Shown: one piece after another, positions 49,986 through 56,285 of the stretch | How positions within the stretch are numbered: the stretch's first letter is position 1 | Layout: each line of letters begins with the position of its first letter | From: Phycisphaerae bacterium | GTDB lineage: Bacteria; Planctomycetota; Phycisphaerae; Sedimentisphaerales; Anaerobacaceae | NCBI GenBank assembly: GCA_017993835.1 | Contig: JAGOLX010000011.1 | Span: 62,001 to 126,000, forward strand | DNA length: 64,000 nt | Direction: 5' to 3' | Notes under the pieces: model-generated | Seen by the model: only the letters and a program-made list of their open reading frames with translations | The model's database searches: none | What the model was told of the DNA's origin: nothing | Program-made: the position numbers and the translations under genes

Positions 49986-50082
49986 TCGCATTTGCCATTT
50001 ACGATTTACGATTTGTGCTGACGCTAATTCTGGGAACCGCAAATCACCAACAATGGACTGTGCGTTCCGATGGGAGATGACA

Positions 50083-52359
50083 ATGGCAACGCAACGACGT
50101 GTCACACGGCGTGAGTTTCTGGATCGGTCGGTGAAGGCAGGGGCGGCGGGGTTCTTTGCGACCTGGGCTGCGAACGGCGCGATACGCACGACGCAGGCCG
50201 CAGAACGCTTGGCGTACCAGATCGGCTGCTACACGCGGCCCTGGGATCAGTACGAGTATCGCGTCGCACTCGATGCGATTGCCGAAGCGGGTTATGAGTA
50301 TTGCGGTCTGATGACGACCAAATCGGAGAGTCATCTCGTGATCTCGGTCGCGACGACGCTTGAGGAGGCCGCCCGCGTCGGCGAGGAGGTCCGCAAGCGA
50401 AAGCTCAAGGTGGCTTCCGTCTACGGCGGGGACATCCCGGTGGCCCAGTCGCTCGAAGCGGGCATCGCGGGTCTGCGGAAGCTCATCGACAACTGCGCCG
50501 CGTGCGGCGCGACGAACCTGCTGATGGGCGGGATCGGCGATCCGAAGCTCTACGAGCCGTACTACAAGGCGATTGCCGAGTGCTGTGACTACGCCGCCGA
50601 GAAGGGCATGGGGATCAGCGTCAAGCCGCACGGCGGGCTCAACGCCACCGGGCCGCAATGCCGAAAGACCGTCGAGTTCGTCGGACACAAGAACTTCCGC
50701 ATCTGGTACGATCCGGGCAATATCTTCTATTACTCCGATGCCAAGCTCAACCCGGTCGACGATGCGCCGAGCGTGGATGGACTCGTGATCGGCATGAGCG
50801 TCAAGGACTACAAGCATCCGAAGGATGTCGCGGTGACGCCCGGGACGGGCATGGTCGATTTCCCGACGGTCCTTGCGAAGCTGAAGGGGGGCGGTTTCAC
50901 TGGCGGGCCGCTCATCGTCGAATGCCTTGCGCCGGGCGATCTGGCCCACACGCTGGAGGAAGCGAAGAAGGCGCGTCGCTTCCTCGAAGATCTGACCGGG
51001 CAGAAGCCGCGAGATGCGGCGGACGGCGCCCCTGCGACCGGGCCGTTGCAGGCGGGAGTCGCGGTTGCGGACATCACGCCGCCGGTTGGCTATCGTATGT
51101 GCGGCTACTTCAACGAGCGTCTGAGCACGGGCGTCCTGAACCCGCTGCACGCGAAGGCCCTGGTCCTCCGCCAGGGCGACACGCGGGCCGCGATGGTGTT
51201 CTGCGATTTGATCGGGCTGTCCGTCGAGGTCTCCAAGCAGGCCCGCGAACAGATCGAGCGGGAGGTCGGCATCCCGGCGGGCAATATTCTGCTGGCCGCG
51301 ACGCACAGCCACACGGGACCGCTGTACTGCGACGCTCTGAGGGACCATCTCCACACAAAGGCGGTCGTCCACCACGGGAAGGACCCCTGCGAAGAGGTGG
51401 ACTACCCGTCGCAACTCGTCGCGAAGATTGTCGACGCGGTCAAGGAGGCCGATGCCAAGGTTCGCCCGGTTCGTGCGGAGGTGGCGACGTCGCAGCAGCA
51501 GGGCTTGTCCTTCAATCGTCGGTTCCACATGAAGGACGGGACCGTCCGCTTCAATCCCGGCGTCCTGAATCCGGACATCGTCCGAGCGGCCGGCCCGATC
51601 GATCCGGGGGTCGGCGTGGTTCTCTTTCGCGACGGCCAGGCGGCCCTCGCAGGCCTGATGAATTTCGCCCTCCACCTGGACACCCTGGGCGGCACGCTCT
51701 ACGCCGCGGACTATCCGTACTACGTCGAGCAGACCCTGCGTCAGACGCTGGGCGACGACTTCGTCCTGCTCTTCGGCAATGGAACCTGCGGCGACATCAA
51801 TCACATCGACGTCACGACGAAGGATCGTCTCAAGACGGACACCATCGGCACGACGCTCGGCCGGACCGTGGCGGCCGCTCTGCCGCAATCGAAAGTCCTC
51901 GCGAAGCCGCGTCTTGCGGTTCGCCGGGCAGTGGTCGAGGTCCCGGCGCAGCAGTTCACGCCGGCCGAGATCGAGCAGGCGAAGAAGGACATGGACAAGA
52001 TCGGCACCGCGGAACTCTCGTTCCTCGATCAGGTCCGCGCGTACAAGATCGTGGATATCCAGTCTCGCGGCGCGATGATCCCCATCGAGGTCCAGGTCTT
52101 CCGCCTGGGTGACGAGGTCGCGGCGGTCGGTCTGCCGGGCGAGGTCTTCGCCGACATTGGTCTGGCGATCAAGAAGGCCAGTCCCTTCCCGACCACACTG
52201 GTGATCGAGCTGTGCCAGGACAGCGTCGCCTATATCCCGACTTGCAAGGCCTTCGCGGAGGGCAGCTACGAGACGGTGAACTCCCGCATCGCCCCTGGCG
52301 GCGGCGAGCAAATGGCCGACGCCGCGATCCGCCTGTTGAAAGAGCTTCGCGTCCTGTAG
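50083..52359 (+). CDS. Tat-exported fusion of a xylose-isomerase-like TIM barrel with a neutral/alkaline ceramidase-like domain
   Basis: The 758-residue protein has a twin-arginine signal (RRVTRREFLDRS, then a hydrophobic stretch). Residues about 45-315 form a sugar-phosphate isomerase/epimerase-type TIM barrel (YQIGCYTRPWDQYEY, GISVKPHGG, RIWYDPGNIFYY, PLIVECLAPGD). After a short alanine/proline linker, residues about 322-758 match the N-terminal domain of neutral/alkaline non-lysosomal ceramidases: GVAVADITPPVGYRMCGY, FCDLIGLS, LLAATHSHTGP (zinc-binding histidines) and GNGTCGDINH. It may hydrolyse an exported lipid or glycoconjugate amide. The two activities are usually separate genes. Its stop codon lies inside a GTAG repeat. 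Confidence 0.85.
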   Translation: MATQRRVTRREFLDRSVKAGAAGFFATWAANGAIRTTQAAERLAYQIGCYTRPWDQYEYRVALDAIAEAGYEYCGLMTTKSESHLVISVATTLEEAARVGEEVRKRKLKVASVYGGDIPVAQSLEAGIAGLRKLIDNCAACGATNLLMGGIGDPKLYEPYYKAIAECCDYAAEKGMGISVKPHGGLNATGPQCRKTVEFVGHKNFRIWYDPGNIFYYSDAKLNPVDDAPSVDGLVIGMSVKDYKHPKDVAVTPGTGMVDFPTVLAKLKGGGFTGGPLIVECLAPGDLAHTLEEAKKARRFLEDLTGQKPRDAADGAPATGPLQAGVAVADITPPVGYRMCGYFNERLSTGVLNPLHAKALVLRQGDTRAAMVFCDLIGLSVEVSKQAREQIEREVGIPAGNILLAATHSHTGPLYCDALRDHLHTKAVVHHGKDPCEEVDYPSQLVAKIVDAVKEADAKVRPVRAEVATSQQQGLSFNRRFHMKDGTVRFNPGVLNPDIVRAAGPIDPGVGVVLFRDGQAALAGLMNFALHLDTLGGTLYAADYPYYVEQTLRQTLGDDFVLLFGNGTCGDINHIDVTTKDRLKTDTIGTTLGRTVAAALPQSKVLAKPRLAVRRAVVEVPAQQFTPAEIEQAKKDMDKIGTAELSFLDQVRAYKIVDIQSRGAMIPIEVQVFRLGDEVAAVGLPGEVFADIGLAIKKASPFPTTLVIELCQDSVAYIPTCKAFAEGSYETVNSRIAPGGGEQMADAAIRLLKELRVL

Positions 52360-52616
52360 CCCAGCCGCCCCCGGCTGGGGAATCTCGGGAGTCACCCCCG
52401 AGGGCGGGGGTGCCACATGATGCAGACTCGGATCGCGGGATTGGCAAAGGACAGTGACGTATGCCTTGCGAAAGACGAGAACCTGTAGCCCAGCCGCCCT
52501 CGGCTGGGGAATCTCGGGAGCCGCCCTCGGCTGGGTAGTCTCAAGAATCACCCCCGGGGGCGGGGGTGCCACATGATGCAGACTCGGATCGCGGGATTGG
52601 CAAAGGACAGTGACGT
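52356..52616 (+). repeat. REP array upstream of the RAYT gene
   Basis: GTAG-footed hairpins (arms CCCAGCCG/CGGCTGGG) start at 52356 and 52485, the next at 52641 (period 156). Each unit is followed by a second hairpin with arms CACCCCCG/CGGGGGTG ending GCCAC, and by a constant spacer (TGCAGACTCGGATCGCGGGA...). These are BIME-like tandem units. Confidence 0.8.
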
Positions 52617-53273
52617 ATGCCTTGCGAAAGACGAGAACCTGTAGCCCAGCCGCCCTCGGCTGGGGAATCTCTGGAGTCAGGCTTGGCTGGGGAATGTTGG
52701 GAATCACCCCCGGGGGCGGGGGTGCCACATCGCGATGCAGCCCAGTCGCCCCCGGCTGGGGCTCCTCTGGCCAAACCAGGCAAGGCCGCGTACCGGCGCA
52801 ACCTTCCCCATCTGCAGGTTGAGGGCAAGACGATCTTCTTGACTTTCTGCACGGCGAATCATTTCGTCTTGCCCGAGTCCGTTCGCACACAGGTACTACA
52901 TCATTGTCTGCACGATCACGGGAGCAAGATGCACGTTCATGGGGCCGTCGTGATGCCCGACCACGTGCACATGTTGTTCACGGCTTTGTGGGACGAGCAA
53001 GGCTATCCGTACACACTGGCCGAGATCACCAACGGGATCAAGGGTGCCTCCGCGCACTCGGTCAATCGTTTGCTCAAGCGAAAGGGATCGGTTTGGCAGG
53101 AGGAGTCCTTCGACCGCGTACTGCGATCCGACGAAGCGGTGAGAGCCAAAGTCGAGTATATTTGTGCCAACCCGGTCCGAAAGGGCCTGTGCCGGAACGC
53201 GGATGAGTACCCGTGGCTGTGGCGGGAGTGGATCGAAGGTGTAGCCCAGCCGCCCCCGGCTGGGGAATCCTGA
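52617..53273 (+). CDS. REP-associated tyrosine transposase (RAYT, Y1_Tnp family)
   Basis: The catalytic part (about residues 60-200) is a single-stranded-DNA HUH transposase: GAVVMPDHVHMLF near residue 112 carries the His-x-His metal site, ITNGIKGASAHSVNRLL follows, and VEYICANPVRKGLC is the typical RAYT C-terminus. RAYTs recognise REP hairpins with a GTAG foot, and such hairpins surround the gene on both sides. The first 60 residues (VAQPPSAGES, GAGVPH) and the last ten (VAQPPPAGES) are translated REP sequence, so the true start is uncertain, perhaps a GTG near 52720 just before YRRNLPHLQ. Its promoter is not evident. Confidence 0.85.
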   Translation: MPCERREPVAQPPSAGESLESGLAGECWESPPGAGVPHRDAAQSPPAGAPLAKPGKAAYRRNLPHLQVEGKTIFLTFCTANHFVLPESVRTQVLHHCLHDHGSKMHVHGAVVMPDHVHMLFTALWDEQGYPYTLAEITNGIKGASAHSVNRLLKRKGSVWQEESFDRVLRSDEAVRAKVEYICANPVRKGLCRNADEYPWLWREWIEGVAQPPPAGES

Positions 53274-53745
53274 GCGGGGGAATCTCGGGAGTCGCCCTCC
53301 ACTGGGGAGTCTTAGGAATCACCCCCGAGGGCGGGGGTGCCACACGACACGGCCCCGGATCGCGGGATTGGCAAAGGACAGTGACGTATGCCCTGCGAGG
53401 AATCAGAACCTGTAGCCCAGCCGCCCTCGGCTGGGGAATCTTGAGCAGGGGAATCTCGGGAGTCGCCCTCCACTGGGGAGTCCTAAGAATCACCCCCGAG
53501 GGCGGGGGTGCCACATGATACAGACTCGGATCGCGGGATTGGCAGAGGACAGTGACGTGTGCCTTGCGAGGAACCAGAACCTGTAGCCCAGCCGCCCCGG
53601 GCTGGGGAATCTTGAGCAGGGGAATCTTGGGAATCGCCCTCCACTGGGGAATCTCGGGAATCGCCTCCCACTGGGGAGTCCTAAGAATCACCCCCGGGGG
53701 CGGGGGTGCCACACGACACGGCCCCATCTCAAGTCCCGTAACGAT
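53241..53745 (+). repeat. REP array downstream of the RAYT gene
   Basis: GTAG-footed hairpins start at 53241 (inside the transposase 3' end), 53412 and 53583, a period of 171 bp. Each is followed by CTCCACTGGGGA-type spacer, a CACCCCCG/CGGGGGTG hairpin and the TCGGATCGCGGGATTGGCA spacer. The last unit ends near 53720. The rest up to 53879 holds no gene. Confidence 0.85.
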
Positions 53746-53879: not shown

Positions 53880-54485
53880 ATGAGGGAACCGTTGTACAGG
53901 AGATACGGGTGGGTCGCCGCAGTACTTATGATTTGCGCGACCTCTGTGGCGTCCGAGGACAAGCCGTGGAGCCGGGCCTATCGAAGCGAGGTGTACGGCG
54001 TCGTTCAGGTCCTGGGAAGCGACGAAGTCTCAGGTCTTGACGGGATGGCCCGAGCGAATTTCGATACGACGCCGGTCTACGGTGTCGGCATGGGCGTGAA
54101 CCTCTCCTCGCACCTGAATGTGAACACGGAGATCATGCTGGGCTGGGCGGACATCGAAGACTACTCGATCTATGCGCCGGAGGAGGCTGACCAGGACGAA
54201 AACCAGCAGATCTACCTCTGGAACGTCAACCTCGACTACAACATCCTGAAGGGGCGCCTGACTCCCGTGGTCGGCGGCGGGGTCGGCATTCTCGGACTCA
54301 ACGGCGACGACTGGCTTCACGAAGTGCACTTCGCGGGCAACGTGGGCGCCGGCGTCCGATGGGACATGACCGACCATCTCGCCTTGCGGGTCCTCTACCG
54401 ATGCACCTGGTGGGAGATCGAGGACGCCGACGATCCGTTCCAGTTCGACGGCGTGACGGCCAGTCTCATCTGGACGTTCAAGTAG
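53880..54485 (+). CDS. Small outer-membrane beta-barrel protein
   Basis: The 201-residue product has a signal peptide of about 25 residues (ending SVAS-E) and an alternating-residue pattern of transmembrane strands: VYGVGMGVNLSSHLNVNTEIMLGW, LWNVNLDYNIL, LTPVVGGGVGI, VGAGVRWDMTDHLALRVLYRCTWW and a final ASLIWTFK. This is an eight-stranded OmpA/OmpW-like barrel ending in aromatic-Lys. Function beyond barrel formation cannot be said. AAGGATG precedes the ATG. Its stop is 6 bases from the converging radical SAM gene. Confidence 0.75.
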   Translation: MREPLYRRYGWVAAVLMICATSVASEDKPWSRAYRSEVYGVVQVLGSDEVSGLDGMARANFDTTPVYGVGMGVNLSSHLNVNTEIMLGWADIEDYSIYAPEEADQDENQQIYLWNVNLDYNILKGRLTPVVGGGVGILGLNGDDWLHEVHFAGNVGAGVRWDMTDHLALRVLYRCTWWEIEDADDPFQFDGVTASLIWTFK

Positions 54486-54491
54486 TCGGTC

Positions 54492-56198
54492 TCACGTCAC
54501 TCGCTCGCCGACGAGACTGCGGCGCATGTAGCCCGTGACGCGGACGTTGCAGAACTCGTTCAGGGGCAGCCGCTCGTGGACCCCGACGACGATCGGATAG
54601 CTGCCGATCTGACGCAGGAAGGTCATGTGCCCGTTGTGGACCTCGCTGCACAGGTCCTTGAGCACGGTCCCGAGGGGAAAGAGCCGCTGGAGCATCGGGA
54701 TGTCGATCTCCTGGCGGACCTTCTCGATCCAGTCCACGTAATATCGCATGTTCTTGCGGAGGAATCTGCGTCCGACCTGCTGGTAGAGCGGGGTGCCGGG
54801 GAAGGGCACGACCCGCCGGATGTTGATCCGCCGGATCAGCAGGCCCTCGTCGAAGATCCGTTTCAATGCCGCGAAGTTTCTGTCCAGCGTCTCGGGTGTT
54901 TCCGCAGCCAGGCCCAGCAGGATGTTCACTCCCGGCAGCAGCGCGTGACATCCGTTCTCGCCTCGAAAGCCGCCGATCCGATTGACAGTCCGAATCGCCT
55001 CGAAGGCCAGGTCGTAGGGGCAGTTGAGGTTGTTCGCCTTGGTGACCGCCGGATCGAACGACTCGATTCCCATCGCGGCGGTGCTGCCCGGCGTGAGGTA
55101 CTTGACGAATAGCTCCGTCCGCTGCTCGTCGATCATCTGCGGATTGGCGTTGTCGATGTGCAACACGGTCGGGCGCATCGCCGCCAGGCCGGACAGCATC
55201 GCTTCGAGCTTGTGCGGATCGCCCCCTTCGTAGCTGTAGATGCACGACTGCTTGCCCAGGCGGAAGGCCTTGGCGCCCAGGTCCATCAGGGCCGTCACTT
55301 CCTCGACGACCAATTCCGGCCTGCGCCACAGAACCTTGTTCTTGATCGGCTCGGTGCAGAACGAGCAACCCCGCTCGCGGGGACAGCCTCTCCCGGTCTC
55401 GATCTCGACGATTCGGTTCGCCAGGTGCGGCATCTGTCGGATGAACGCGGCGCCGCGGAGTGCCAGCGGCTGCAATTCGTCGTAGGTGTCGAACGAAAGC
55501 GGGCGAAGCTCGTCGAAGTACTCCGCATCGGCCACTTGGGGTCGGGCTCCGCCGCGAGCCTGCGTGCCCCCGACCAGGACGGGCCCGGTCAGGACTTTGC
55601 GGAAGGAGCGCCTGGCTGAAGGTGTAGCCTTGCCGGGTTTGGCCAGAGGAGCCACAGCCGGGGGCAGTTCCAAAGATCCCCCAGCCGGGGGCGGCTGGGC
55701 TACATTGTCATGTGGCACCCCCGCCCCCGGGGGTGAATCCCAAGACTCCCCACCCAAGGGCGGCTGGGCTACTGCAGAGTCCTCGAACGACCGCAGCAGC
55801 TTCTCGACCTCGTGCAGCGTCCCCGGCCTGGCGCTGAGGTACTTGCCCGGCGTCTGGACACCCACGATGATGACCAGCTCGTCCGTGTTCTCCAGGACCT
55901 GTCGGATTTCCTCATAGCTCCGTGTGTGATTGAGCACCTCGAGATGGGTCCGGCCCCTGGGCGGGTCGATCACCACCTCGGGGACGCACTCCACGTAGCG
56001 GACCAGGCGGAGGTCGTCGATGGTCAGGTACGTCGGCTCGTCGTAGCACGGGCATCTTGCCCGTGATTCAGAACTCATGGGGGCGACGTCCGTGCTGCGG
56101 CACCAGCCCGCGACATAGCGGGGCCAGACCCCGATGAACGGCGGCACGCCCAGCCCGGCCGGCTCGTCGGTGTAGCAGTCGAGTATCGTTCTTCTCAT
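54492..56198 (-). CDS. Radical SAM protein carrying two in-frame REP insertions
   Basis: The 568-residue protein opens with MRRTILDCYTDEPAGLGVPP and an N-terminal Rossmann-like part (LTIDDLRL, ELVIIVGVQTPGKYLSARPG). The radical SAM core follows with GCPRERGCSFC near residue 270: the iron-sulfur cysteines are spaced CX5CX2C rather than CX3CX2C. LNCPYDLAFEAI and ILLGLAAETPETL lie further along the barrel. Residues about 34-52 and about 142-192 (VAQPP...PLAKPGKA) are translations of GTAG repeats yet leave the frame intact. It resembles uncharacterised archaeal and planctomycete radical SAM proteins; I cannot name the reaction. Confidence 0.8.
   Translation of the reverse strand: MRRTILDCYTDEPAGLGVPPFIGVWPRYVAGWCRSTDVAPMSSESRARCPCYDEPTYLTIDDLRLVRYVECVPEVVIDPPRGRTHLEVLNHTRSYEEIRQVLENTDELVIIVGVQTPGKYLSARPGTLHEVEKLLRSFEDSAVAQPPLGGESWDSPPGAGVPHDNVAQPPPAGGSLELPPAVAPLAKPGKATPSARRSFRKVLTGPVLVGGTQARGGARPQVADAEYFDELRPLSFDTYDELQPLALRGAAFIRQMPHLANRIVEIETGRGCPRERGCSFCTEPIKNKVLWRRPELVVEEVTALMDLGAKAFRLGKQSCIYSYEGGDPHKLEAMLSGLAAMRPTVLHIDNANPQMIDEQRTELFVKYLTPGSTAAMGIESFDPAVTKANNLNCPYDLAFEAIRTVNRIGGFRGENGCHALLPGVNILLGLAAETPETLDRNFAALKRIFDEGLLIRRINIRRVVPFPGTPLYQQVGRRFLRKNMRYYVDWIEKVRQEIDIPMLQRLFPLGTVLKDLCSEVHNGHMTFLRQIGSYPIVVGVHERLPLNEFCNVRVTGYMRRSLVGERVT
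55624..55772 (-). repeat. 149-bp REP element inserted in frame in the radical SAM gene
   Basis: On the minus strand it runs from GTAG (55772) to CTAC (55624) and contains CCCAGCCG/CGGCTGGG and CACCCCCG/CGGGGGTG hairpins plus CTCCTCTGGCCAAACC. The last segment also lies at the 5' edge of the RAYT coding region (about 52762-52785). The element thus corresponds to the left end of the RAYT locus. Confidence 0.8.
56043..56098 (-). repeat. Second GTAG repeat inserted in frame in the radical SAM gene
   Basis: GTAG foot at 56043-56046 (plus strand) with arms CACGGGCA/TGCCCGTG, followed by a degenerate partner ending GTGCTGC. It is translated as part of RSTDVAPMSSESRARCPCY. Confidence 0.7.
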
Positions 56199-56285
56199 TT
56201 ACTATTGGCCATTTGCGATTTACTATTTGGACATCGTGATTGTAGCCGGTTCGCGGTGGCCTGTAAATCCGTCGAGGAGTTCGTC

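What the first reader, a model, noticed from the sequence alone, without database searches (positions are those of the whole stretch)
54492..56198. Two different REP elements inserted in frame in one radical SAM gene
The radical SAM frame stays open over 568 codons although residues about 34-52 and about 142-192 are translations of two distinct GTAG repeats (56043-56098 and 55624-55772). The larger one also carries the CTCCTCTGGCCAAACC segment found at the 5' edge of the RAYT gene. This looks like protein evolution by REP insertion, with surface loops gained.
Basis: seen in the sequence. Interest (0 to 1): 0.62.

Follow-up and report, generated by a model that had tools for sequence, protein, structure and literature searches.

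The report
Mobile DNA repeats inside enzyme genes
In a planctomycete, two different families of short mobile DNA repeats have inserted in frame into a working enzyme gene, and relatives in the same genus carry other repeats at the same two loops and in essential genes; this is a known kind of event, but it recurs here unusually often.

Summary
The 568-codon radical SAM frame holds two unrelated GTAG-tagged REP insertions: a 56-nt inverted pair (residues 34-52) and a 149-nt composite (residues 143-192). The composite ends in the leader of the neighbouring RAYT gene. Both repeats are multicopy. Orthologues show clean empty sites: the second linker is 3 residues in 51 of 59 relatives, against 62 here. 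The gene is not decaying (dN/dS 0.09 outside the inserts). AlphaFold gives the large insert as a disordered loop.

Two corrections. The large insert is not private: congener G005 (UBA2218) has it at the same nucleotide. And the case is not unique: at the same two sites other congeners carry other REPs, and similar loop insertions occur in AlaRS, KsgA and MnmE, with single cases in GcvT, HolB and others.

Most likely RAYT-type transposition seeds REPs, and only in-frame insertions in permissive loops survive, as near-neutral linkers. In-frame intragenic REPs are prior art (Rickettsia RPEs; Di Nocera 2013, which also noted a shared recB site). New here is genus-wide recurrence of unrelated families in the same loops, a transposase-leader composite, and inserts shared between species that have diverged far less than the host gene's synonymous sites.

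The parts
54492..56198 (-). radical SAM gene, 568 aa; MiaB/RimO-like fold; invariant C272, C278, C281 (CX5CX2C)
   Evidence: (PF04055)
56043..56098 (-). Insert 1: family B REP inverted pair (degenerate in its first half on the coding strand), residues 34-52, net +18 codons, read with CTAC at its 3' end
55624..55772 (-). Insert 2: GTAG...CTAC composite of family A REPs plus RAYT leader, residues 143-192
55706..55772 (-). Insert 2, left unit: full family A REP (67 nt; 90-91% identical to REPs near the RAYT of G005)
55627..55704 (-). Insert 2, right unit: REP head plus RAYT 5' leader (78 nt, 90% identical to the region upstream of the RAYT of G005; 26/27 nt to the leader in G000)
52617..53273 (+). 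RAYT (REP-associated tyrosine transposase) ORF; core about 52800-53240, HVH motif; both ends of the ORF run into REPs
   Evidence: (PF01797)
52354..52744 (+). family A REP array upstream of the RAYT
53240..53713 (+). family A REP array downstream of the RAYT

Best explanation
Family A REPs are spread by the RAYT encoded 1.2 kb away; family B and other REPs by transposases acting in trans. Copies land throughout the genome, and those inside genes survive only if they keep the frame, lack stops in that frame and fall in a loop that tolerates extra residues. In this gene that happened at two loops: after residue 33 (family B) and in the linker after residue 142 (family A plus RAYT leader). The transcript is translated straight through, giving an enzyme with two non-conserved extra loops, the larger one disordered, that are neutral or nearly so. 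The same permissive loops have been hit repeatedly by different REP families in related species. Shown: repeats, empty sites, kept frame, selection on the core, recurrence, predicted disorder of the larger insert. Inferred: RAYT-driven insertion, translation of the inserts, neutrality.
For: Multicopy repeats. Empty sites: at site 1 all orthologues but two have 5-12 residues, and one of the two is G003 with its own REPs; at site 2 51 of 59 have 3 residues. In four of six empty congeners the site-1 place is a TAC codon, matching the REP's terminal CTAC. Core dN/dS 0.09 against G005 and 0.08 against G004 and G006. Insert 2 has pLDDT about 30 between helix 128-143 and strand 200-204 of a model with mean pLDDT 84.5. 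Recurrence in the same gene: family B in G004 site 2; a third family in G003/G007 site 2 (64 and 41 genomic matches); two tandem family B units in G003 site 1. Other genes: AlaRS, KsgA and MnmE, GcvT, HolB, kinase, Bax1-like.
Against: No transposition or expression was observed. No RAYT flanked by family B REPs was found, so its transposase is unknown. Insert 2 differs at only 7 of 165 nt between G000 and G005, against pS 0.44 in the rest of the gene; a plain ancestral neutral insert would be expected to differ more. A short non-REP intergenic control also differs by only 14%, which softens this but does not remove it.
Confidence: 0.82

Rival explanations
1. The inserts are maintained for a function: a DNA or RNA hairpin in the gene (mRNA stability, translation pausing, nucleoid binding) or a selected flexible linker. 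That would explain why they diverge slowly and why the same loops are occupied again and again.
For: Insert 2: 2 of 47 synonymous sites changed, against 158 of 358 outside. KsgA array shared by G000 and G005: 11 differences in 147 nt, in the spacers between the palindromes and apparently none in the stems, while flanking codons have pS about 0.48. Inserts fold stably (-84 kcal/mol for insert 2).
Against: N:S inside insert 2 is 5:2, the neutral ratio, so no protein-level selection is visible. Three of the insert 2 differences lie in the first REP. Many congeners lack any insert. Gene conversion from other REP copies or later arrival would give the same slow divergence.
Confidence: 0.12
2. Insert 2 moved between the two species, or inserted twice in parallel, after they split, rather than being inherited from their common ancestor. 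(This concerns history and is compatible with the best explanation.)
For: Low divergence of insert 2 (4.2%), RAYT synonymous sites (17%) and shared intergenic REPs (12.5%) against host synonymous sites (about 44-50%). The gene tree without inserts places G000 with G004/G006/G001 rather than with G005, at 88% bootstrap support.
Against: Diverged flanks begin within a few codons on both sides, so no recombination tract is visible. No second full copy of the composite was found in either genome. Synonymous distances of neighbouring genes make G005 the nearest relative. The non-REP intergenic control is 14%.
Confidence: 0.25
3. The frame is fortuitous: the gene is a decaying pseudogene or the inserts are assembly artefacts in this MAG.
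For: All genomes are MAGs; insert 1 rests on one assembly.
Against: dN/dS 0.09, all invariant cysteines kept, no stop. Insert 2 is found independently in G005. Site 1 is filled with the same REP family in G003.
Confidence: 0.03
4. The REP segments are removed from the RNA or bypassed by the ribosome, so the mature enzyme lacks them.
For: Strong hairpins; not excluded by sequence.
Against: Every case aligned here keeps the reading frame, which removal or bypass would not require. No splicing or bypass signature was sought.
Confidence: 0.03

Closest known systems
Intragenic GTAG and CGTC REPs (Di Nocera et al. 2013, PMC3733652)
   Same: GTAG-tagged palindromes, single or dimeric, in frame inside ORFs of housekeeping enzymes, including tRNA synthetases; some genes hit twice; different REPs at about the same site of recB in two Xanthomonas species
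   Different: Here the same loop is occupied by three unrelated REP families across one genus, and filled loops recur in several genes; one insert carries the leader of the transposase gene; whole inserts are shared between species
Rickettsia palindromic elements (RPE; Ogata et al. 2000, 2002, as summarised in PMC10969869)
   Same: short palindromic elements inserted in frame into many unrelated protein genes, thought to be structurally tolerated
   Different: different repeat families and lineage (sequences not compared here); family A here flanks a RAYT transposase gene
REPIN/RAYT systems (REPtrons; PMC3116915, PMC8266576)
   Same: inverted REP pairs and a RAYT flanked by its REPs; GTAG end motif
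   Different: described as mainly extragenic; here a composite of REP and RAYT leader is embedded in a coding gene

Membership tests
GTAG REP superfamily | GTAG tetranucleotide at one end | tested here: met
   Both inserts start with GTAG on one strand; insert 2 has GTAG...CTAC ends
GTAG REP superfamily | palindromic stem-loop | tested here: met
   Family B element from G004 folds as one long hairpin at -41 kcal/mol; insert 2 -84; the degenerate insert 1 only -25
GTAG REP superfamily | high copy number dispersed in the genome | tested here: met
   84 family A and 48-53 family B matches in G000
RAYT / REPtron | Y1 (IS200-like) transposase with HUH motif | tested here: met
   PF01797, E 4.9e-5; MPDHVHM
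RAYT / REPtron | single-copy gene flanked by cognate REPs | tested here: met
   One close copy in the genome, family A REPs on both sides
RAYT / REPtron | cognate RAYT for family B | tested here: inconclusive
   Two distant RAYT-like genes found; neither is flanked by family B REPs
RAYT / REPtron | transposase acts on the REP (cleavage, mobility) | not testable with these tools
   needs biochemistry
In-frame intragenic REP (Di Nocera 2013) | REP wholly within an ORF, frame kept, homologous protein on both sides | tested here: met
   alignment with orthologues
Rickettsia RPE | RPE sequence similarity | not tested
   resemblance in behaviour only
MiaB/RimO methylthiotransferases | fold: N-terminal domain, radical SAM barrel, C-terminal beta domain | tested here: met
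   best Foldseek hits are MiaB and RimO, target-normalised TM about 0.55-0.66, 12-17% identity
MiaB/RimO methylthiotransferases | match to the curated family models | tested here: not met
   No MiaB or RimO model among the NCBIfam hits; only weak TIGR04013/TIGR04014/HpnJ matches far below cut-off; CX5CX2C instead of the usual CX3CX2C

The most novel reading that the evidence does not exclude
In this planctomycete genus particular loops of conserved enzymes are standing landing sites: unrelated REP families, and possibly other short repeats, enter the same loop again and again, and the resident REP sequence is then kept by DNA-level selection or by conversion from other copies, so that enzyme loops become a reservoir for REP populations.
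Probability: 0.2. Interest if true: 0.75.

Novelty: new variant of a known kind. Interest (0 to 1): 0.52.

Why it matters
It gives a natural insertion experiment. One genus offers filled and empty versions of the same loop in AlaRS, KsgA, MnmE and a radical SAM enzyme, with several unrelated REP families. That makes three questions testable: whether REPs target loops or merely survive there, whether the RAYT elements still move, and whether REP peptides change enzyme function. It also warns annotators that segments such as VAQPPPAG, RSMGVPPM or HGRDAHAT in proteins of these planctomycetes can be REP-derived.

Tried and rejected
Rejected: pseudogene (dN/dS 0.09); insert unique to this genome (shared with G005); simple vertical inheritance as a settled fact for insert 2 (divergence and gene tree disagree). 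A first estimate of 37/213 differences for the shared intergenic REPs (used) was replaced by an exact alignment, 27/216. The G008 site-2 segment looks repeat-like but has only one further weak match in its genome, so it is not counted as a REP. In one search the AlaRS row of G000 was a wrong-strand ORF; one search is the corrected alignment. In one search one codon-usage training sequence was out of frame, so that survey only nominates candidates; those named here were checked by family models or orthologue alignments. The AlaRS structure was too poor to use (mean pLDDT 51.9). Outside the genus, one archaeal orthologue (L060) has 22 residues at site 1, unlike any REP peptide here.

Full report
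OBSERVATION. The frame 54492-56198 on the minus strand is open for 568 codons and encodes a radical SAM protein (PF04055). Two segments are multicopy repeats. Window 55624-55772, read on the coding strand, runs from GTAGCCCAGCC to GGCTAC and encodes residues 143-192. Window 56043-56098 starts GTAGCACGGGC on the plus strand and encodes residues 34-52. The first has 84 matches in its genome of 6.4 Mb, the second 48, or 53 with an intact relative as query. The two families are unrelated in sequence. Both are GTAG-tagged palindromes; the intact family B element is a 58-nt long hairpin (-41 kcal/mol), while the copy in this gene is degenerate in one half (-25 kcal/mol). The relatives' record titles (Phycisphaerales, Sedimentisphaerales) show that the window comes from a planctomycete MAG.

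ANATOMY OF INSERT 2. It is a composite: a full 67-nt family A REP, a short joint, then a 78-nt unit that matches the region directly upstream of the RAYT core (90% to that of the congener G005; 26/27 nt to the leader in this genome), ending GGCAAGG-CTAC. The RAYT itself lies at 52617-53273, 1.2 kb away on the other strand, with family A REP arrays on both sides. It has an HVH motif and a Y1_Tnp match. The 12 nt at the right end of the insert (GGCTACACCTTC) are the reverse complement of the RAYT 3' flank (GAAGGTGTAGCC), seen by eye and not tested statistically.

EMPTY SITES. 59 relatives were aligned, from congeners to Woesearchaeota. At site 2, 51 of 59 have exactly 3 residues between the flanking positions; only members of this genus have 9 to 62. 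At site 1, 57 of 59 have 5-12 residues; the exceptions are G003 (29, REP-derived) and one archaeal sequence (22, not REP-like). The flanks join cleanly. At site 1 four of six empty congeners carry a TAC codon where the REP's terminal CTAC now sits, which fits insertion next to a GTA(G) on the other strand but is not proof.

SELECTION. Against G005 the rest of the gene has dN/dS 0.09; against G004 and G006 0.08. Invariant residues, including C272, C278 and C281, are present. The gene is not a pseudogene.

STRUCTURE. The AlphaFold model (60 sequences, mean pLDDT 84.5, pTM 0.85) gives residues 143-196 as coil with pLDDT about 30, between helix 128-143 and strand 200-204. Insert 1 follows helix 25-36 and is a lower-confidence segment with a short helix. 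The fold resembles MiaB and RimO, but no MiaB or RimO model matched, so the enzyme's function is unknown. Surface exposure was inferred from disorder and variable length; solvent accessibility was not computed.

THE INSERTS IN RELATIVES. G005 (UBA2218, Phycisphaerales) has insert 2 at the same nucleotide. Other congeners have other repeats there: G004 a perfect family B element, G003 and G007 a third family with 64 and 41 matches in their genomes. G003 also has two tandem family B units at site 1, replacing a few residues. Under a crude uniform model, five events falling 3+2 into two 10-residue windows have a probability of about 0.0005; tolerance is uneven along a protein, so this shows clustering, not targeting.

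OTHER GENES. The same pattern occurs in AlaRS, where the loop between GQVGDxGVI and FVVEET is filled in G000, G003, G007 and G002 with different sequences and empty in G001, G004, G006, G008 and G032. The G003 insert there matches the family found in the G007 radical SAM gene (G003:C35:9967-10017). In KsgA the loop before NLPYDV carries a family B array in G000 and G005 and short unrelated segments in some others; in MnmE the loop between the switch regions is filled in six of ten genomes, though only the G000 segment was matched to a REP family. In G000 the survey also nominated GcvT, HolB, a PknB-like kinase, a Bax1-like nuclease, an RND adaptor and a MetF-like protein.

DIVERGENCE PUZZLE. 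Between G000 and G005 insert 2 differs at 7 of 165 nt, nonsynonymous to synonymous 5:2, the neutral ratio, while synonymous sites outside differ at 44%. RAYT synonymous sites differ at 17%, shared intergenic REPs at 12.5%, and the KsgA array at 7.5% with the differences in its spacers, while its flanks have pS about 0.48. A short non-REP intergenic stretch differs by 14%, so part of the gap may reflect fast synonymous sites or conserved intergenic DNA. Insert 2 is still lower than the intergenic REPs (Fisher p 0.006). Possible causes are late arrival or transfer, conversion among REP copies, or constraint at the DNA level; the data do not decide. G005 is a mixed bin with several rpoB copies, but the contig in question carries the syntenic genes.

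MECHANISM AND KNOWN KINDS. The best reading is RAYT-type seeding followed by survival of in-frame insertions in permissive loops. In-frame intragenic REPs were described by Di Nocera et al. 2013 (PMC3733652), including tRNA synthetases, doubly hit genes and a shared recB site in two Xanthomonas species, and Rickettsia RPEs are the classic parallel (review PMC10969869). What is added here is the recurrence of unrelated families in the same loops across one genus, the transposase-leader composite, and inserts shared between species with little divergence. Literature searches in the held library found no report of this in planctomycete proteins, which is limited evidence, as subscription papers are missing.

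Noticed in passing
L135 (G000:C110:1863-5918): A MetF-like ORF contains two in-frame copies of a further repeat of about 40 residues (KVRRxEGxKVGEMVARD...SDLLxFxPS), besides a family A REP; the same long frame later reads HHRGTEVTE, which looks like yet another repeat.
   Followed up: no
window 56200-56240 and about 49988-50010: A short AT-rich repeat (TTTGCCATTTACGATTTAC...) sits upstream of the radical SAM gene and between two other genes, and also occurs in G005.
   Followed up: no
window 53880-54485: An outer-membrane beta-barrel gene lies between the RAYT array and the radical SAM gene; the corresponding interval in G005 is only about 250 bp.
   Followed up: partly
window 52617-53273; L031: REPs on both sides are open in the RAYT frame, so the RAYT ORF is artificially extended (about 300 aa in G005).
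   Followed up: partly
KsgA loop in G003, G004, G007, G008 (L219, L220, L221, L223): Instead of REPs these carry short G/P-rich segments (e.g. MGRIGPMRPIGPV) at the same loop, which look like another simple repeat.
   Followed up: no
L013, radical SAM site 2 in G008: An inverted-repeat-like segment (CCGGAGGCTGGAGGCC...CTACAGCCTCC) fills the loop but has only one further weak match in its genome.
   Followed up: partly
window 54492-56198; orthologues L044-L109: The radical SAM family, with CX5CX2C and no assigned function, is shared by planctomycetes, Woesearchaeota and other archaea.
   Followed up: no
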